A DNA stretch of 64,000 bases from Mesoplasma lactucae ATCC 49193 (GTDB taxonomy: Bacteria > Bacillota_I > Bacilli_A > Mycoplasmatales > Mycoplasmataceae): NCBI RefSeq assembly GCF_002441935.1, contig NZ_CP023668.1:62001-126000 (forward strand). The letters run 5' to 3'. The notes beneath the pieces were generated by a model. That model did no database searches, was not told the origin of the DNA, and saw only the letters and a program-made list of their open reading frames with translations. Position numbers and translations under genes: made by a program. The number at the start of each line of letters is the position of its first letter. Positions within the stretch are counted from its first letter, which is position 1. Positions 13,945 to 41,114 of the stretch are shown one piece after another.

Positions 13945-14184
13945 TATAATGAGAAATGGAAATCAACTTTTAAATAAGTTAAAGGTTATTTCTTAACTGA
14001 TAAAAGAATTTAATCAACCCAAAACAAAACGTTATGTGTATCTAGCATCGTTTAAAGATTGTGTTCTTAGAAAAATTTTTCGATTCTTTTTATCATCTTG
14101 AATTACAATTCTACTCAAATCTGTAATTCAAACTTTTTTAAAAATTAATTACTTGAACTTTTAATATGAAGTTCAAGTTTTTTT
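13945..14184 (+). ncRNA. Probable small structured RNA with own promoter and terminator, unassigned
   Basis: This 360-base gene-free stretch holds a TATAAT box (13945-13950), then about 230 bases with several stems and no convincing ORF, then a strong terminator. Visible stems are AACTT/AAGTT (13965-13980), AGTTAA/TTAACT, AAACG..ATG/CAT..CGTTT (14027-14053) and TGAATTACA/TGTAATTCA (14099-14130). The terminator is ACTTGAACTT / AAGTTCAAGT plus T6 (14151-14184). I do not recognise tmRNA, RNase P RNA or SRP RNA in it. It could also be a 3' UTR of the phosphatase gene, but the -10 box and independent terminator favour a separate transcript. Confidence 0.5.
14151..14184 (+). terminator. Intrinsic terminator of the putative small RNA
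   Basis: A 10-bp perfect stem ACTTGAACTT / AAGTTCAAGT with loop TTAATATG is followed by seven T residues. Confidence 0.9.
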
Positions 14185-14279
14185 ATGTCAGAAAATGGCT
14201 CGATTTTTGATATTCACTTTAATTTGTTAGAATAATAAAGATATTAAAAAGTTAACAAATTATAAAGGAGAGAATAATT

Positions 14280-16289
14280 ATCGAAACAGACAAGAATAAA
14301 AACATCGAAAACAGTGCTGAAGATTTAAATATCTATTCAGAACACTGAGATCGCCTATTAGCTTTAGAAAGTGATATTGATGAAGACAACATCTCTATTC
14401 AAAATAACTTTAAAGCTTTAAAAGCCATCGATAGATTAAAAAAAGTTCAATTAAAAGAACTTAAAACTTTATATCATGACCAACATCTTTCAAAAGATGA
14501 ATATGATAAACAAAAAACATTAATTAACGATAAAGCTTTAGAATCTAAAAACGAAGTTTTAGATGAATTAAGCTACAATACATCTTTTATTGTCGCTAAG
14601 TATAAAGAGCTTACCGACTTACAATCTCATAAGAGAATTAAAGAAATTAATAAAAGACTTTCAACAGAACAAAAGAAAGTTAATCGCAAAGTTAAACAAG
14701 ATAAAAAACTAGCAAAACAAGAACTTAATAAGGTTGTTAAAACTTATAAAGAAAATGGTGTTTCAAAAGAAAAGATCAATGAATTAAAAGAACAATATGA
14801 AATTCGTTTCTTAAAAAAACATGAAAAAACTTTAGCAAAACAAGAACAAATTAACGACGGATTTATTAAATCTAGTCGTTCAACTTCTTATCAAGCAATT
14901 ATGATTGCTTTATTAGTAGCAGTTCCAACCTTATTATTAATTGGATTATTAGTAAATTATCTTTACTACATTCCACAAACTAATAAACAACACATAGCAG
15001 CAGGTAAAGATGCTTTATGAAATAATGGTGGCTATGGCTTTGAATTTTCAAGTGTCACAACCCCAGGATTTATTATCAGTATGATTCTAGTAGTGATGAT
15101 TCTTGTGTTTACAGCATTCTTAATTAAGCACTCTGCAAAAAGAATCGTAATCGATCGTGAAACTAATACTGCCAAAGTTGCAAGTATTGGATTTATTGCC
15201 GCTTTCTTTGACATGATGGGGGTTGGAAGTTTTGCTTCTGGTCTTGCTATGTTTAAAGCTGGAAATGTTATTAAAGATGACAAAATGACACCAGGAACTT
15301 TAAATATGTCATTTTGTGCACCAATTATGATGGAAGCATCATTCTTGGTTGGAGCAATTAGTGTTGATATTTTAACACTAGTAGTTCTAGTAGTTGCTGC
15401 TGTAATTGGTAGTTATATTGGAGCTAGTTTAGTTGATAAATTTAATGCTCAAACTATTAAATTAGTAATGGGAAGTGCTTTATTTATTGCTGGAATCGTA
15501 ATGATTTTAACAACACCACAAGTAGCTTTAATTGGAGCTGCTGGTGGAGCTAACGGAATTGTTGGTTGAAAATGAGCCGTTGCTGTTCCAGGGTTCTTAT
15601 TAATTGGAGTCTTAATGAGTTTTGGAGTTGGTAGTTATGCTCCAAGTATTCTATTATTAAGTTTATTAGGAATGGGATTAATTTATATTGCTCCAATCAT
15701 GACTTGTACTTCAGCATTCTTAATGCCAGTAACTTCATATAAATTCTATAAAGATAATAACTACTTACCAAAAACCTCATTAACAACCATGTTAGGAGCA
15801 ATTTTTGGTTCAACCATAGCCTTTTTATTCTTCTATGCAGGATTACAAGGATCTGGAGTAATGTCTGCTGATGGAGTTGCTTATAAATCAATTGTTAAAT
15901 GATTAACAATTGCTGTAATGTTCTATTCATCAATTACAATGTTTATTCAATATTTCCAAAACCGTAAAACTGCTGGTGAAAAAGCTGAAGCTATGAAAAA
16001 ACGTAATAAACGTAAATCATTAACCAAAGTTAATAAACAAGATTTAACTCCAACTATTAATCAACAATATGAAAAAACTCTAGATCGTTATAGTAATGAT
16101 TTAGATACTAAATCAATTGTTGAACAAGAAAATATTCCAATGGACGAATGAGTTAAAAACCCGAACTCAGAAGAAGATTTAGTTTCAGATTCAGTTGATA
16201 AAGTCTTAAAAGATATTGATACTTCAAAACCAAATCCTAAAAGAAAAACTAAGGTTGAAAAACCAGAAGAAAAGAAGAAAACTAACTAA
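14280..16289 (+). CDS. TauE/SafE (TSUP)-like transporter with N-terminal coiled coil, non-AUG start
   Basis: This is a 669-residue protein. Residues 1-200 are charged and heptad-like (EHWDRLLALESDIDEDN, then long K/E/Q-rich helices). A membrane segment follows at about 205-230, then a TSUP core with the typical SIGFIAAFFDMMGVGSF and PGTLN motifs, about eight membrane spans, and a basic cytoplasmic tail from about residue 560. TSUP proteins move small anions such as sulfite or sulfoacetate; the substrate here is unknown. There is no in-frame ATG before base 14908. AAAGGAGAG (14264-14272) is followed by ATA-ATT-ATC in frame, so the start is ATT (14277) or ATC (14280). Conservation with the next gene begins right there. 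No GTG or TTG is available earlier. Confidence 0.82.
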
Positions 16290-16332
16290 AAAACTTTAAT
16301 TTAAGAGTATTATTATAAATAATAAATATTTT

Positions 16333-16368
16333 AAAACACGCAATGATTTTTATCATAGTGTGTTTTTT
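16333..16368 (+). terminator. Intrinsic terminator between the first two TauE-like genes
   Basis: AACACGC pairs with GTGTGTT and ATGAT with ATCAT around a TTTT loop, followed by T6. TATAAT at 16371-16376 right after it is a probable promoter for the next gene, so the two paralogues are separately transcribed. Confidence 0.85.
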
Positions 16369-16430
16369 AGTATAATTAATTAATATTTTAAGGAAATAAA
16401 ATTAACATTTATAAAAAGGGAGAGATTTTT

Positions 16431-18401
16431 ATAGAACAACCTGAAAAGAAACGGGTGTCAGTTCAGCATGAAAAACCAATCACTAGTTTAAGTATTGAAT
16501 CTGAACACTGAAACAAACTTTTAGAGTTAGAACGCGATATTGATGAAGATAATATCAACATTCAAAATAACTTTAAAGCTTTAAATGCGATTGATCATTT
16601 ACAATCAGTCCAATTAAAAGAACTTCGTTCTTTATATCGTCAAAATGTTATTTCAAAAGATGAATTTAAAGAACAAAAAGAAGTAATCTCAAAAAACGCT
16701 GAAGATTCAAAAAACGAAATCTTAGATGAATTGAGTTACAATACCTCTTTTATTGTTGCTAAGTATCAAGAATTAACTGACTTACAACAACACGATAAAA
16801 TCAAAGAAATTAATAAAAAATTCTCAAGAGCAAATCGTAAGATTAATCACAAGATTAAACATGAAAAACGCCAAGCTAAAAGAGAAATGAATAAAGTTGT
16901 TAAGACATATGAAAAAAATAATATGCCTGAAGCAAAAATTGATGAATTGAGAAATACTTATCAAACCAAACAACTTGAAAAACAAGAAAAATTAATGCAA
17001 AAACAAGAAGTAATCAACCAAGGATTTATTAAATCTTCAAGATCTGCTTCTTATCAAGCAATTATGATTACCTTAGTAATCTCAGTACCAGTTTTATTAT
17101 TAATTGGATTATTAGTAAACTACTTTTACTATGTTCCACAAACTAATAAATTTGGTAATGATTCATTATGAACAGGAGGGTATGGGTTCCAATTTACAAG
17201 CCATACAATTCCAGGATTTATTATTTGTATGCTTTCAGTAGCATTAGTAATTGGATTTACTTGATTCTTAATCAAGAAATCAACAAAAAGAATTGTAATT
17301 GATAGAAATGCTCCAACCGGAACATTAATGTCAATTGGATTCTTAGCTTCATTCTTTGACATGATGGGGATTGGATCATTTGCTTCAAGTTTAGCAATGT
17401 TCAAAACTACAAAATCAATTAAAGATGATTCAATGATTCCAGGAACAACAAATGTTGCTTTCTGTGTGCCTAATACAATGGAAGCTGCATTCTTAACAGC
17501 AGCAGTTGATACAAATATTGTGTCATTAGTTGTTTTAGTATTATGCGCTATGGTTGGTTCTTATTTCGGAGCAACTATTGTTAAATACTTTGATGCACAA
17601 AGAGTGAAACTTGTAATGGGTTCAATCTTAATCATTGCAGCAATTGTAATGATTTTAACAACTCCTCAAGTCGCTTTAATTGGAGCTGCAAAAGAAGGAG
17701 CAAAAGGAATTATTGGATGAAGATGAGCTGTAGCTGTACCAGCATTCTTATTAATCGGAGTCTTAATGGCTTTTGGAATTGGTAGTTATGCTCCAAGTTT
17801 ACTAGTTTTATCATTATTAGGAATGAGTACAATTTACTGTACTCCAATCATGACTTGTTCATCAGCATTCGTAATGCCTGTAACTTCATACAAATTCTAT
17901 AAGGATAATAACTACTTGCCAAAAACTTCACTTGCAGTAATGCTTGGGGGAATCTTTGGTTCAACCATTTCCTTCTTATTCTTCTACTGTGGATTAATTG
18001 GATCTGGAACTATGAAATCTGATGGAGTTGCTTATACTTCAATCATGAAATGATTAACAGTTGCTGTTATGTTCTATTCATCATTCACAATGTTATTTGG
18101 ATACTTTAAAAACCGTAAAGCGGCCAACGAACAAAAAGAAAATGAGAAAAAAACAAACAAACGTCAACCGTTAGGAAAAATTAGAAACAAAGCTAATTTA
18201 ACAAACGAAATTCGTCAACAATATCTAGATACCTTAAATAAATATAAAAACTCTTTAGATACTAAAGAAATTGTTGAAAAAGAAAACTTACCAAAAGAGG
18301 AATGAGTTAAAAACCCAAACTCTGATAAAAGAGAACCGGTAGTTGAAGTTCAAAAAACTAAGAAACTACCTCGCGTTAAGAAAAAACAAGTTAAAAAATA
18401 A
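16431..18401 (+). CDS. TauE/SafE (TSUP)-like transporter with N-terminal coiled coil, ATA start
   Basis: This 656-residue close paralogue of the preceding gene has the same layout: coiled coil (about 1-205), first membrane span, TSUP core (FDMMGIGSFASSLAMFK, PGTTN, GSYAPSLLVLSLLGMS) and a basic tail. The best ribosome site AAGGGAGAG (16416-16424) is 8 bases before ATA 16431. The codons after it (GAA CAA CCT) lie where the sibling gene starts. The only canonical alternative before residue 100 is GTG 16455, which has no ribosome site. The coding match with its sibling starts at SEHWNKLLELERDIDEDN, upstream of any ATG. Like its sibling it probably exports or imports a small anion; the coiled coil could be a partner-binding or sensing part. 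Confidence 0.82.
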
Positions 18402-18459: not shown

Positions 18460-19674
18460 ATGAAAGACAAAAAAAGCGCGAAGCAAGATTTAACAACCGA
18501 TGCTTCCAAAACAGCGTTACAAACTTCATCGACTGATTTAGTGACTTTAAAAGCACCAAATGATAAGATGAAACACTTAAAATCGTTTCTACTAGTAGGA
18601 ACTTTAATAGCTGCTTTAACCACAACTTTAATTGGGTTAATTGTCAGTTTACTTTACTATGTACCAGGTACATCAGAACCGAAGTGAGAAAAATATAATA
18701 TAGCAGATCACGTAGGACCATTTGTTATAGCCATGATTTTTGTAGGGGTAATTATCGCCTTTACTATAGCTTTGGTTTTAACAGCTAAAAAACATCTAAT
18801 TTTAGATACAAAAACTGGTTTAGCTTCTGCTGGATCAATTGGATTTATTGCATCATTTACTGATGTAATTTCAGTTGGTTCTTATGGAGTGACAATGGGA
18901 TTAAACAAACCATTGAAAATGAATTTAAAACCAAAACTAATGCCAGGAACTTTAACTGTTGGTTATGCAGTTCCACAAATGCTAGAATCAACTTTATTCT
19001 TAGTTGCTTTTGATGTTGAAATTGTAACTTTAATTACCATGATGGCAATTTGTATTGTTGGGGGAATTGTTGGTTCATTTATCGCTAAATATGTAAACTC
19101 ACAAGTCTTTAGATTAATTGCTGGAGTAATGTTATTTGTCTTTGCGATTTTAATGATCTTAGTTCACCCACAAGTTGGAGTTATTAAAGCTGCAGCTGAT
19201 GGAATTGGAACATCTGGATTAAGAGGATGAAGATTAGCAGTTGGATTAATTGCTTACTTCTTCTTAGGAATTTGTTCTTCATTAGGATTAGGAATTTTTG
19301 CTCCTTCTTTAGCAATCTTAGCTTTATTAGGATTATCACAAACTGCTATTTTAGCAATCATGTCAGCCAGTGCTTCAGGAATGATGCCACCAGCTGCCAT
19401 TAAATATATGAAAGATAAAAACTACAACTTAAAGGATGCCTTAATGATGACATTTGGTGGAGTCTTTGGAACTCTTGCAGCCTTCTTAATTATCTTTGTT
19501 GGAATTCAAGTTGGTGGAGATGTTGAAATGAAAACATTCTACAACGTCTTAAAATGAATTGCTGTTGCAGTTATCTTCTACTGTTCATTCATGATGCTTT
19601 TTGACTTTGGAAAAGACTTCAAAAAATATGGATGAAATGATGACACAGACGATGTCATTCCAGATATGAAATAG
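18460..19674 (+). CDS. TauE/SafE (TSUP)-like transporter, short form
   Basis: This third paralogue has 404 residues and lacks the long coiled coil: only about 45 polar residues precede the first membrane span (FLLVGTLIAALTTTLIGLIV). The TSUP core is recognisable but divergent: SIGFIASFTDVISVGSYG replaces FDMMGVGSF, and PGTLTVGYAVPQMLES matches the second conserved region. It starts with a normal ATG behind AAAAAAGGAGAAA. It lies 58 bases after the second paralogue with no terminator between, so the two are probably cotranscribed. The three genes together may form hetero-oligomers or handle different substrates; both are guesses. Confidence 0.85.
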
Positions 19675-27734: not shown

Positions 27735-28712
27735 ATGACAAAAACACAAACGAAGTCTGTCAAAAATTCTGATGATAATCAGAATGGCAATAGCCAAGTT
27801 TTTAAAACAAAAATGAAAAACTTTTTAGGAGTTAGAACAATTGGTTCTGATCTAAAAAGTTTACCAAAGGGGTTTAAATATTTCATTGCTATAGCAATTG
27901 TAGTTATCATTGTTTTTAACTTTGTATCAGTTACAAATAATGAAGGTACTGTATTTTTACCTTTACAAAAATACCGTGGGGTATTAGATGGAAATACACC
28001 ATCTTTATTTGGAGATAGTAAATCAGCTGCAACTGCTGTAGCCATACTTTATTCATTCAATGGGGTTGCTGCTTTCTCAGGAGTATTAATGGTTGCGTTA
28101 ATTAACTTCAATAAAGCTTCGCAATATTTCTGACAAATGGTTAATGCATTATTCTTCGGAATGTTTGCTTTATCAGTTGGATTTGTTGGAGACTTATTAA
28201 TGAATGCCATTCTCTTATTATTTGCACCAGTTGGGTGATATTTATTTGAAGTTGCTGGATTTGGAAACAGAAAACAAGATGCGAAAGGTTGAAAATTCAA
28301 TTTAGCATTTTATTCAATTTTAATTTTATTAGCCTTTATTGTAATCATGTTTTGATATTGAGCTTTACCTGGAGCTACAAAAGATTTATTCCCAAAAGGG
28401 GAAGGTTGATATACAAACTGACCTGATGGAAATCATAAAGGTAAAACCATCCAAATTCTTGATGGAATGACAAATGGTTTAAACACTGTTGGATTTGGAA
28501 TGCAAATGGCTAACTTAAACCAACAATTCTATGTTTGATTCTGTGTAAATATTTTAAAAATATTACAATTCTCTGGATTAGCTGGAAAATCAACATTAAA
28601 CGTTAACATGTTAATCGAATTTGGAGTTTGATTCGCTTTATCATTAACTGGTTTATGAAACCGTAACTTGAAAAAAGTTATTATGCCTTTGTTTGATAAG
28701 AAAACTAAATAA
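27735..28712 (+). CDS. PnuC-like nicotinamide riboside/nucleoside transporter, copy 1
   Basis: This 325-residue membrane protein has a polar N-terminus of about 35 residues, then MKNFLGVRTI and about seven hydrophobic segments. The block YFWQMVNALFFGMFALSVGF, VGDLLMNAILLLF, APVGWYLFE fits the PnuC family pattern (N-Y-x-F-G-x-x-N, then GD-x-x-x-N, then GW). NQQFYVWFCVNILKIL is the second family signature. PnuC proteins import nicotinamide riboside or related vitamins by facilitated diffusion. Its stop overlaps the next start (TAATG), so translation of the pair is coupled. Substrate assignment rests on family resemblance only. Confidence 0.8.
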
Positions 28713-29626
28713 TGGTTGTAAATCAAACTAAAGAAAACCAAGTTTTTAAAGCCAAAATGAAAAACTTTTTAGGAGTTAGAACTATTGGAGATGATCTTAA
28801 AAGTCTTCCTAAAGGATTTAAATATTTCATTGGTTTTTCAATCATTGTTATTATCGTATTTAACTTTGTTTCAGTGACCAAAGACTTTAATACAGTCTTT
28901 TTACCATTACAAAAATATCGTTGAGTTCTAGAAAATGGATCTGTATTTGGTGATAGTAAATCAGCAGCAACCGCTGTAGCCATACTTTATTCATTCAATG
29001 GTATAGCCGCATTTACTGGAGTTTTAATGGTTGCTATGATTAACTTCAATAAACCATCACAATATTTTTGACAAATGATAAACTCATTATTCTTTGGAAT
29101 GTTTGCTTTATCTGTTGGATATGTTGGGGACTTATTTATGAACATCATCCTTTTATTATTTGCCCCGGTTGGTTGATATCTATTTGAAGTTGCTGGTTTT
29201 GGTAAAAGAAATCAACAACCAAAAGGATGAAAATATAATTTGGCATCAGCTATCATTATTATTCTTGTAGCCTTTATTGTGATTATGTTTTGATACTGAG
29301 CGTTGCCAAATGCAGGAAGTGATTTATTTCATGAAAACACTCCTTATGCTGATAGTGATGGAAGAAATGGAAAAGCAATTCATATTCTTGATGGAATGAC
29401 AAATGGTTTAAATACAACTGGATTTAGTTTACAAATGATGAACTTAAACCAACAATTCTATGTTTGAACTTTTGTAGATACTTTAAAGATTCTTCAATTC
29501 ACAGGAGTTGCTGGTAAATCAACTTTAAATATTAATATGTTAATTCAATTTTCAGTTTGATTTACTTTATCATTAACTGGATTATGAAATAGAAGTTTAA
29601 AAAAACTTTATCAAGCCTTTATTTAA
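28712..29626 (+). CDS. PnuC-like transporter, copy 2
   Basis: This 304-residue paralogue of copy 1 begins within the stop of that gene and shares MKNFLGVRTIGDDLKSLPKG and the whole membrane core. The polar N-terminal extension is shorter. The last residues read SLKKLYQAFI and stop at 29624. Shifting by one base gives IKPLFKK followed by TAA, which matches the endings of copies 1 (PLFDKKTK) and 3 (SLFKK). A single-base insertion near 29605-29611 has therefore probably altered the last eight residues without changing length much. A terminator follows. Confidence 0.8.
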
Positions 29627-29638
29627 GAAATAAACTTT

Positions 29639-29668
29639 AAAACAATCTCTTAATAGATTGTTTTTTTT
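29639..29668 (+). terminator. Intrinsic terminator after PnuC copy 2
   Basis: AAAACAATCT / AGATTGTTTT with loop CTTAAT, followed by T residues. Confidence 0.9.
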
Positions 29669-29761
29669 GTTTTAATAGATAAGAAAAATAATTTCAAAAC
29701 AAAATTAAGATTGGTACAATTAAAACAATGTGTAAAGCAAAATAGATAAGGTGATTAAACT

Positions 29762-30742
29762 TTGAAAAAAGAACAACAAACAAAAACACCTGAACAAATT
29801 CAAAAACAAAAAGACTTTAAACTAAAAATGAAAAACTTTTTAGGAGTTAAAAATATTTGATCTGATATCAAATCAATTCCTAATGCTTTTAAATGGTTTT
29901 TAGTTGTGGCAACAGTTATTATTATTGTTTTTAACTTTGTTTCAGTTAATGCTAAACAAGGACAATCAGTCTTTTTACCAACTCAACAATATGATAATGT
30001 TTTAGCTCATGGTTCATTATTTGGGAACTCTAAAAGTGCTGCTACAGCTATTGCTGTTCTATATTCATTAAACGGAATTGCAGCCTTTACTGGTTTATTA
30101 TCAGTAGCTATGATGACTTTTAACAAAGGTTCACAATACTTCTGAGGATTAATGAATGCGATTTTCTTCGGATTATTCTCACTTTCAATTGGTTATGTTG
30201 GGGACTTCTTCATGAACATTATTCTAATTTTAGGAGCACCTTTGGGATGATACCTTTTTGAAGTTGTTGGCTATGGAAATAGAAAACAAGAAACTAAAGG
30301 TTGAAGATTTAACTTAGCCTTTTACACAATCTTAATTGTTGTAATGTTTATTGTTGTAATGTTCTGATATTGAGCTTTACCAAATGCTTCAACTGATTTA
30401 TTTGGTAAAAATAACAATCAATATTTAAACGGGCAACTAAATGCAGATGGAACCCCAATCTTAGGTGGTTTAAACAATCCAAACATCAATGGTAAAAACT
30501 TACAAATTCTTGATGGGGTTGCAAACGGAATGCAAACTGTTGGATATGGAATGCAACTTGCTAACTTAAACCAACAATTTTATGTTTGACTAGCAGTTGA
30601 TGTTGTTAAAGTTCTTAAATTTACAGGATTAGCTGGATCTGATACTTTAAATATCAACATGTTAATTCAATTCGGGGTTTGATTAATCATTGCTTTATAT
30701 GGATTATATGAACGTAACTTTAAAAGTTTATTTAAAAAATAA
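29762..30742 (+). CDS. PnuC-like transporter, copy 3 (TTG start)
   Basis: The 326-residue protein starts at TTG 29762 (KKEQQTKTPEQIQKQ), with AAGGTGATT upstream at good spacing; no ATG occurs before the conserved MKNFLGVKNIW. The core matches copies 1 and 2 (YFWGLMNAIFFGLFSLSIGY, VGDFFMNIILILG, GWYLFEVVGYGNRK). It has a longer insert before the last two spans (about residues 215-250, rich in Asn and Gly). One Trp is TGG (29893). It ends with SLFKK and is followed by a short terminator. Confidence 0.8.
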
Positions 30743-30747
30743 TAATT

Positions 30748-30780
30748 AAGAAACAAGCTTGACATGAGCTTGCTTCTTTT
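30748..30780 (+). terminator. Terminator overlapping a promoter after PnuC copy 3
   Basis: CAAGCT (30754-30759) pairs with AGCTTG (30767-30772), followed by CTTCTTTT. The stem overlaps TTGACA (30759-30764), a perfect -35 hexamer for the TATATAAT at 30783-30790. Confidence 0.6.
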
Positions 30781-30790
30781 CATATATAAT
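30759..30790 (+). promoter_or_regulatory. Promoter of PnuC copy 4
   Basis: TTGACA (30759-30764) is followed after 18 bases by TATATA(AT) (30783-30790). This is the best consensus promoter in the window and shows that copy 4 is separately expressed. Confidence 0.7.
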
Positions 30791-30827
30791 TTTTCCAAAA
30801 GAGAAAAAAGGAAATAAGATAAAAACA

Positions 30828-31730
30828 ATGAAAAACTTTCTTGGGATAAATAATGTTAAAAAAGATATTATGAATCTTTCTTCATTCTTTAAATGATTAT
30901 TAGTTCTATCAACAATCGCAATTGTTGTTTTTAATTTTGTTTCTGTCAAAAACGTTTATGAAACTGTCTTTTTACCGCTACAACAATATCATAAGGTATT
31001 AGATAAAGGTTCTCAGTTTGGTAAAACGCAAAGTGCTGCTATAACTATAGCTATACTTTATTCACTAAATGGGTTAGCCGCTTTTACTGGGGTAATTGCA
31101 ATTATTATGATTTCTCAAAATAAGGTTTCACAATACTTTTGAGGAGCAATTAACTTCTTCTTTTTTGGTTTATTTGCTTTATCTGTTGGTTATGTTGGGG
31201 ATTTTTTTATGAACTTCATTCGTTTCTTTGGAGCTCCAATTGGTTGATATTTATTTGAGAAAAAGGGTTATGGGAAACGCCAAGCCAAAAAAGAAGGGTG
31301 AAAATATAATTTAATTTTCTATTCAATTCTTTTAGTACTTTCATTTATTATCACCATGTTTTGATATTGAGCTTTGCCAAATGCTTCAACTGATTTATTT
31401 GGTAAAACTAATAACCAATATTTATTAAGAACTCCAGATGTTAATGGAAAGAATTTACAAATTCTTGATGGAGTTGCAAATGGTTTAAATACAGTTGGTT
31501 ATGTGATGCAATTAATTAACTTATCACAACAATTTTATGTTTGATTATGAATGGATATTGTAAAAGTGCTTAAATTTAGTGGATTAGCTGGAAAAGCTAC
31601 TTTAAATATTAATATGTTAATTCAGTTTTCAATTTGAGTTTTTATGTGTTTTGTTGGTATCTATAAAAGAAGTTTAGAACCAATTTATAAACCTAAAATT
31701 GATTTATGAAAAGCTAGTTTAAAAAAATAA
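30828..31730 (+). CDS. PnuC-like transporter, copy 4
   Basis: This 300-residue copy is the most diverged. It starts directly at MKNFLGINNVKKDI and lacks the polar extension of the others. Family blocks persist: YFWGAINFFFFGLFALSVGY, VGDFFMNFI, GWYLFEKKGYGKR, and SQQFYVWLWMDIVKVL. The ribosome site AAAGGAA is 15 bases before this ATG, which is long; an in-frame ATA at 30819 would be 6 bases away and add three residues, so the start is uncertain. Four neighbouring copies suggest different substrates or dosage. Confidence 0.78.
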
Positions 31731-40568: not shown

Positions 40569-41114
40569 ATGAGTCAAGAAAATAGATTTCAACCAAGAAA
40601 ACAACAAGAAGACGCAGTTGATAAAGCAATTAGAGCTCGCGAAATCTTAATTATTACAGATGATGGGAACAAAATTGGACCTATCTCAAAAAGAGAAGCA
40701 TTACAAATGGCAGAAGATGCTGGATTGAACTTGCTTCAAGTTGGTCAACAAGGACCAGTAGCAATCGCCAAAATTGTTGATTACGGAAAATACAAATACG
40801 AACAACAAAAAAAAGCAAAAGAAAACAAAAAACACCAAACAGAAACTCAAAACAAAGAAATTCGTTTGACAGTTAAAATTGGTGAACACGATTTAGATAC
40901 CAAAGCTCGTAAAGCTAGAGAATTTATCGAAGCTGGAGATCGCGTTAAAGTCTCACTTAAATTTAAAGGAAGAGAAATCGTGTATATGGATTTAGGTCAA
41001 CAAACTTTAGATCGTTTTTATGATAAAGTTTCAGACGTTGCTACAATTGAAAAAGCTCCAAAATTAAACACACGTTTCTTAGACATGTACATTGTGCCTA
41101 AAAAGAAAAATTAG
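40569..41114 (+). CDS. infC: Translation initiation factor IF-3
   Basis: The 181-residue factor binds the 30S subunit and checks start codons. N-terminal domain features are AIRAREILIITDDGNKIGPISKREALQMAEDAGLNLLQVG (seen in parts), the linker is Lys-rich (KAKENKKHQTETQNKEI), and the C-terminal domain has RLTVKIGEHDLDTKARKAREF and VSLKFKGREIVY. The start is an ordinary ATG behind GGAGGT, unlike the AUU/AUC start of many infC genes. The in-frame extension upstream runs through the leader terminator and is not coding. Confidence 0.97.
   Translation: MSQENRFQPRKQQEDAVDKAIRAREILIITDDGNKIGPISKREALQMAEDAGLNLLQVGQQGPVAIAKIVDYGKYKYEQQKKAKENKKHQTETQNKEIRLTVKIGEHDLDTKARKAREFIEAGDRVKVSLKFKGREIVYMDLGQQTLDRFYDKVSDVATIEKAPKLNTRFLDMYIVPKKKN

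What the first reader, a model, noticed from the sequence alone, without database searches (positions are those of the whole stretch)
14264..16457. Two paralogous TauE-like genes appear to start at ATT/ATC and ATA
Both long TSUP genes have a strong ribosome site and a conserved coding N-terminus that begins upstream of any ATG. In the first, the in-frame codons after the ribosome site are ATA, ATT, ATC and no ATG occurs for about 210 codons. In the second, ATA 16431 sits 8 bases after GGAG, and only an unsupported GTG follows. Two independent genes with AUH starts are unlikely by chance. AUU/AUC/AUA starts are discriminated against by IF3 (classically at infC), so these transporters might be translated according to IF3 level. 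Here infC itself has an ATG.
Basis: partly seen in the sequence, partly recalled or inferred. Interest (0 to 1): 0.8.

Follow-up and report, generated by a model that had tools for sequence, protein, structure and literature searches.

The report
Three mollicute genes lacking standard start codons
In this small mollicute genome two sister transporter genes, and a third unrelated enzyme gene found here, seem to begin at AUA, AUU or AUC instead of AUG; such starts are known but rare, they probably keep protein output low, and ordinary gene finders would cut these proteins short.

Summary
TSUP1 has no ATG/GTG/TTG for 215 codons after its frame opens. Its N-terminal domain is nevertheless as constrained as its membrane domain. 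A strong Shine-Dalgarno (SD) is followed by ATA-ATT-ATC. TSUP2 has a strong SD 8 nt before ATA 16431 and only a poorly supported GTG 24 nt on. The two genes are paralogues, so they are not independent evidence. I found independent evidence: in the same genome a Cof-type HAD hydrolase has ATT exactly where 31 of 31 checked orthologues have ATG, with an in-frame TAA directly before it and an SD 7 nt upstream. In 464 kb of this genome these are the only 3 AUH-only genes among about 290. Similar samples of three relatives gave none that hold up. Spacing and second codon favour AUC 14280 and AUA 16431. The relative's TSUP has an in-frame ATG at that site, so AUH is not demonstrably conserved beyond this genome. 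infC starts at ATG, and IF3, initiator tRNA and uS9 show no relaxed-fidelity changes; IF3-responsive control is possible but unsupported. Best reading: weak AUH starts rescued by a strong SD, as in S. aureus cvfC1/ccpN. A new member of a known kind.

The parts
14151..14178 (+). terminator-like hairpin upstream of TSUP1 (end of the preceding unit)
   Evidence: scan; fold -12.7 kcal/mol
14207..14236 (+). promoter-like site of TSUP1 (TTGATA-18-AATAAT)
   Evidence: consensus match 10 of 12, (number of such sites in the region is not above chance)
14264..14270 (+). Shine-Dalgarno AAAGGAG of TSUP1
   Evidence: 7 bases complementary to the anti-SD CCUCCUUU
14274..14276 (+). ATA, in frame, 3 nt after GGAG; aligns with the ATG of the G001 orthologue; spacing atypical
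14277..14279 (+). ATT, in frame, 6 nt after GGAG; second choice for the TSUP1 start
14280..14282 (+). ATC, in frame, 9 nt after GGAG, followed by GAA; preferred TSUP1 start
14280..16289 (+). TSUP1: TauE/SafE-like membrane protein with an N-terminal domain of about 200 residues ahead of the membrane part
14901..14903 (+). first in-frame ATG of TSUP1, no SD; start here would delete the N-terminal domain
16333..16366 (+). hairpin followed by T-run between TSUP1 and TSUP2, probable terminator
   Evidence: fold -15.0 kcal/mol; not picked up by the scan
16416..16422 (+). Shine-Dalgarno AAGGGAG of TSUP2
16431..16433 (+). ATA, 8 nt after GGAG, followed by GAA; preferred TSUP2 start
16455..16457 (+). 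GTG, in frame, weak SD; alternative TSUP2 start
16431..18401 (+). TSUP2: paralogue of TSUP1 (64% identical)
18460..19671 (+). TSUP3: third TauE-like gene, ordinary ATG start with AAAGGAG
40569..41114 (+). infC (IF3), ATG start with GGAGG

Best explanation
TSUP1 and TSUP2 are intact, translated genes whose ribosomes start at AUH codons, most likely AUC 14280 and AUA 16431. Initiator tRNA (CAU) pairs with two of three bases, and a strong, well-spaced Shine-Dalgarno holds the 30S subunit in place. Yield should be low, of the order of a tenth of an AUG start by analogy with S. aureus. The AUG was probably lost on the branch leading to this genome, before or around the duplication, and the genes have kept working since. 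The genome uses the same kind of start at least once more, an AUU in a Cof-type HAD hydrolase. Shown: sequence, SD, absence of alternatives, constraint on the N-terminal domain, the ATG-to-ATT change in the hydrolase. Inferred: that initiation takes place there, its efficiency, the exact codon in TSUP1, and any advantage of low output.
For: No standard start for 215 codons in TSUP1. The domain upstream of the first ATG is as constrained as the membrane domain (63% vs 68% identity between paralogues; codon-position differences 0.29/0.17/0.36 vs 0.29/0.16/0.36) and carries a weak SHOCT-like match at residues 61-86 of TSUP2 (E 0.00024, below the Pfam cut-off). In the 108-odd ATG genes of this genome with a GGAG, spacing is mostly 6-10 nt; ATC 14280 lies at 9, ATA 16431 at 8, whereas ATA 14274 (3) and ATT 16425 (2) are outside. 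Second codon GAA occurs in 20 of 234 confident genes and ATC in none, which favours ATC over ATT in TSUP1. No ATG in any frame in the leader. Hydrolase L056 (minus strand, 16456-17328): TAA-ATT-AAA-CTA with AAAAGGGGA 7 nt before, where 31 of 31 checked orthologues have ATG. Only 3 such genes among about 290 here and none that stand up in three control samples. Consensus sequence is sound: 110 conserved genes, 40,644 aligned residues, no frameshift and no genuine internal stop. AUU/AUA starts with extended SD are experimentally shown in S. aureus (PMC13009471).
Against: No ribosome or protein data. G001's orthologue has an in-frame ATG at the TSUP1 ATA 14274 position. The hydrolase AUU is found in this genome only. 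TSUP2 could start at GTG 16455 without losing the conserved region. The three exceptions come from one consensus sequence that could not be checked against reads.
Confidence: 0.8

Rival explanations
1. TSUP1 is made only as a short protein from internal ATG 14901 and TSUP2 starts at GTG 16455; the upstream SDs are chance or relics.
For: Both are standard codons.
Against: ATG 14901 has no SD. The 195 codons upstream of it are conserved about as strongly as the rest, in both paralogues and in G001. For TSUP2 this rival is weaker but not excluded, since the conserved region begins after the GTG; the SD of the GTG is -2.1 against -7.5 kcal/mol for the ATA.
Confidence: 0.08
2. Sequence or assembly error: the real codons are ATG.
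For: Each start is one base from ATG; G001 and all hydrolase orthologues read have ATG.
Against: No frameshift and no genuine internal stop in 110 conserved genes, so the error rate looks far too low to hit three of about 290 start codons by chance. The three sites share no obvious motif.
Confidence: 0.06
3. The genes have lost their starts and are dying pseudogenes.
For: Loss of a start codon is a plausible first step of decay in small genomes (general knowledge).
Against: The reading frames are intact over 669 and 656 codons, and constraint continued after the duplication. Both paralogues and a third gene keep strong SDs in place. A newly dead hydrolase gene cannot be told from an AUU-started one by sequence alone.
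Confidence: 0.06
4. AUH starts form an IF3-responsive regulon: transporter and hydrolase output rises when IF3 activity falls. (A refinement of the best explanation rather than an exclusive alternative.)
For: IF3 discriminates against AUH starts in E. coli and against GTC of sigR in Streptomyces (PMC5472188).
Against: infC itself has ATG in the family members that could be read. IF3 at the E. coli R131 position is K or R as in the relatives, the initiator tRNA keeps GGG/CCC in its anticodon stem, and uS9 ends in SKR. Nothing links the three genes functionally.
Confidence: 0.12

Closest known systems
S. aureus cvfC1 (AUU), ccpN (AUA), citZ (AUA) and infC (AUA) (PMC13009471)
   Same: AUH start directed by a strong or extended SD; a low-GC Gram-positive; reported output about 10% of AUG
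   Different: Proven by Ribo-Ret and reporters; the cvfC1 and ccpN starts are described as conserved. Here unproven, and conservation outside the genome is not shown.
E. coli infC and pcnB (AUU)
   Same: AUU start, low expression
   Different: infC is autoregulated through IF3; here infC has AUG
Streptomyces sigR (GTC) (PMC5472188)
   Same: Noncanonical start limits a non-infC protein
   Different: GTC, not AUH; IF3 repression shown genetically
TauE/SafE family (TSUP, PF01925)
   Same: TSUP2 and TSUP3 exceed the Pfam cut-off; TSUP1 is 64% identical to TSUP2
   Different: Long N-terminal domain upstream of the membrane part in TSUP1/2

Membership tests
Genes with AUH (near-cognate) start codons | No usable ATG/GTG/TTG between the in-frame stop and the conserved N-terminus | tested here: met
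   TSUP1 and the hydrolase: met. TSUP2: a GTG with weak SD remains possible
Genes with AUH (near-cognate) start codons | Strong SD at the spacing normal for the organism | tested here: met
Genes with AUH (near-cognate) start codons | AUH codon conserved in orthologues | tested here: inconclusive
   TSUP: both paralogues lack ATG; G001 has ATG plus a well-spaced ATC. Hydrolase: 31 of 31 orthologues have ATG
Genes with AUH (near-cognate) start codons | Ribosomes initiate there with fMet | not testable with these tools
   needs ribosome profiling or N-terminal proteomics
IF3-autoregulated (infC-type) start control | infC itself starts at AUH | tested here: not met
   ATG at 40569, and ATG in the forward-read family members
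IF3-autoregulated (infC-type) start control | Expression responds to IF3 level | not testable with these tools
   needs reporters
Relaxed mycoplasma initiation (altered initiator tRNA, IF3 R131, uS9 tail; recalled from memory, paper not found in the library) | Initiator tRNA without three G-C pairs, IF3 R131 to P/F/Y, uS9 tail TKR | tested here: not met
   GGG/CCC stem, K at the R131 position as in the relatives, SKR tail
TauE/SafE (PF01925) | Profile match above the curated cut-off | tested here: met
   TSUP2 43.4 and TSUP3 40.2 bits, cut-off 32.6; TSUP1 29.9, below but 64% identical to TSUP2

The most novel reading that the evidence does not exclude
This lineage has a small set of genes held at AUH starts by selection, maintained through a gene duplication and about 36% protein divergence, so that a transporter pair and a phosphatase are throttled at initiation, possibly according to IF3 or initiator-tRNA supply.
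Probability: 0.2. Interest if true: 0.65.

Novelty: new member of a known kind. Interest (0 to 1): 0.43.

Why it matters
If confirmed these would be, as far as I could find in the searched library, the first well-supported AUH starts in this mollicute family; the 2015 survey of mollicute start codons reports only ATG/GTG/TTG (PMC4444185). Gene finders limited to ATG/GTG/TTG would clip about 200 residues from TSUP1 and the catalytic DLDGT motif from the hydrolase. The pair is a natural test of whether AUH starts persist under selection after duplication, and the ATG form in G001 offers a ready comparison.

Tried and rejected
AUG start followed by a frameshift: rejected, no ATG in any frame in the TSUP1 leader. 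Stop-codon read-through from upstream: not favoured, because a probable promoter and a terminator lie just upstream. A genome-wide shift to AUH starts: rejected, only 3 of about 290 genes, and a homology-based start census found only the hydrolase as a clear ATG-to-AUH change. Relaxed fidelity machinery: rejected on initiator tRNA, IF3 and uS9. Known RNA element in the leaders: none. An xseA-like candidate in L044 was dropped because a TTG lies 3 codons upstream. IS3-type transposase hits in control G047 were dropped as probable frameshift genes.

Full report
WHAT THE SEQUENCE SHOWS. The window lies in an 837-kb mollicute genome (G000, TGA=Trp); one other genome of the genus is held (G001). 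TSUP1 (frame 14256-16289) and TSUP2 (16392-18401) are TauE/SafE-like membrane proteins with an N-terminal domain of about 200 residues. A third TauE-like gene follows at 18460 with an ordinary ATG. In TSUP1 the leader reads AAAGGAG-AGA-ATA-ATT-ATC-GAA and no ATG, GTG or TTG follows in frame for 215 codons from the frame opening. In TSUP2 it reads AAGGGAG-AG-ATT-TTT-ATA-GAA, with GTG 16455 eight codons after the ATA.

IS THE N-TERMINUS CODING? Between TSUP1 and TSUP2 the domain upstream of TSUP1's first ATG is 63% identical, against 68% for the membrane part, with the same pattern of differences at codon positions; the comparison with G001 gives the same picture. TSUP2 shows a weak SHOCT-like match at residues 61-86, below the Pfam cut-off. 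The leader of TSUP1 holds no ATG in any frame, so there is no AUG start with a frameshift. A probable terminator (14151-14178) and promoter (14207-14236) just upstream make TSUP1 its own transcript; promoter-like matches in this AT-rich region are not above chance, so that part is weak.

WHICH CODON? In this genome the distance from GGAG to the ATG is mostly 6-10 nt. In TSUP1 ATC 14280 is at 9, ATT 14277 at 6, ATA 14274 at 3. In TSUP2 ATA 16431 is at 8 and ATT 16425 at 2. GAA is the second commonest second codon (20 of 234) and ATC is never one. ATC 14280 and ATA 16431 are homologous positions, both followed by GAA. I therefore prefer AUC and AUA, with AUU 14277 as second choice for TSUP1.

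INDEPENDENT EVIDENCE. The two genes are paralogues and count as one. I therefore looked for AUH-only genes with a strong SD in 464 kb of the genome. A Cof-type HAD hydrolase (L056, minus strand 16456-17328; genome 816456-817328) was the only other case. Its frame opens with TAA-ATT-AAA-CTA after AAAAGGGGATTAT, and the first ATG lies just after the catalytic DLDGT motif. In 31 of 31 orthologues read, including G001 (75% identical), the same codon is ATG. This is a clean ATG-to-ATT substitution at a conserved start. Controls of 400 kb gave no AUH case in G001 and none in G006, and in G047 only transposase frames and one poorly supported frame. A homology-based census of starts between G001 and G000 agrees.

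SEQUENCE ERROR. In 110 conserved genes and 40,644 aligned residues there was no frameshift and no genuine internal stop; the two flagged stops are the TAA before the hydrolase ATT and the normal end of a gyrA-like gene. Three base errors confined to start codons are very unlikely. Reads were not available.

EVOLUTION. A tree groups TSUP1 with TSUP2 against the G001 gene (support 82/80), so the duplication probably came after the split. G001 reads AAGGAAAGG-ATG-AGG-ATT-ATC-AAA. Its ATG aligns with ATA 14274, and its ATC with ATC 14280. The G001 ATG is closer to its SD than usual (4 nt from AGGA), while the ATC sits at a usual 8 nt. An AUG is nevertheless the likely G001 start. Either AUG was lost once before the duplication and AUH has lasted through 36% protein divergence, or it was lost twice. 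Both suggest that low output is tolerated or favoured; neither is proven.

MECHANISM AND CONTROL. Precedents: S. aureus cvfC1 (AUU), ccpN, citZ and infC (AUA), with extended SDs reported for cvfC1, ccpN and infC and about 10% of AUG output for the reporters tested (PMC13009471); Streptomyces sigR (GTC), repressed by IF3 (PMC5472188); E. coli infC and pcnB (cited in the same papers). The IF3-level idea is not supported beyond analogy: infC has ATG in every member of the family that could be read in the forward orientation, IF3 is ordinary, the initiator tRNA has its three G-C pairs, and uS9 ends in SKR.

VERDICT. Observation confirmed; AUH initiation likely (TSUP1 about 0.85, hydrolase about 0.8 if the gene is alive, TSUP2 about 0.7); IF3 regulation unproven. 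A new member of a known kind, of moderate interest.

Noticed in passing
L056:16456-17328 (minus strand; genome C1:816456-817328): Cof-type HAD hydrolase starting at ATT directly after an in-frame TAA; ATG in 31 of 31 orthologues read.
   Followed up: yes
L041:9228-10124 (+): Lipoprotein gene whose ATG (ATGAAAAAACTATTAAG) is out of frame with the conserved lipoprotein signal and body; a one-base indel near the start, pseudogene or phase-variable.
   Followed up: no
L041:6698-7141 (+): Second lipoprotein-like frame without an in-frame start; an ATG just upstream is in another frame, separated by an A6 tract.
   Followed up: no
window 28709-31727: Three consecutive paralogous membrane proteins (PnuC-like by eye), with weak SDs and starts that may be ATG, TTG or an internal ATG.
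   Followed up: partly
L094:1337-2269, L105:14479-15411, L106:17036-17968 (G047): Three identical IS3-type transposase second frames (by eye) without own start, probably expressed by programmed frameshift.
   Followed up: no
window 16333-16366: Hairpin with T-run between TSUP1 and TSUP2 suggests separate transcripts for the two paralogues.
   Followed up: partly
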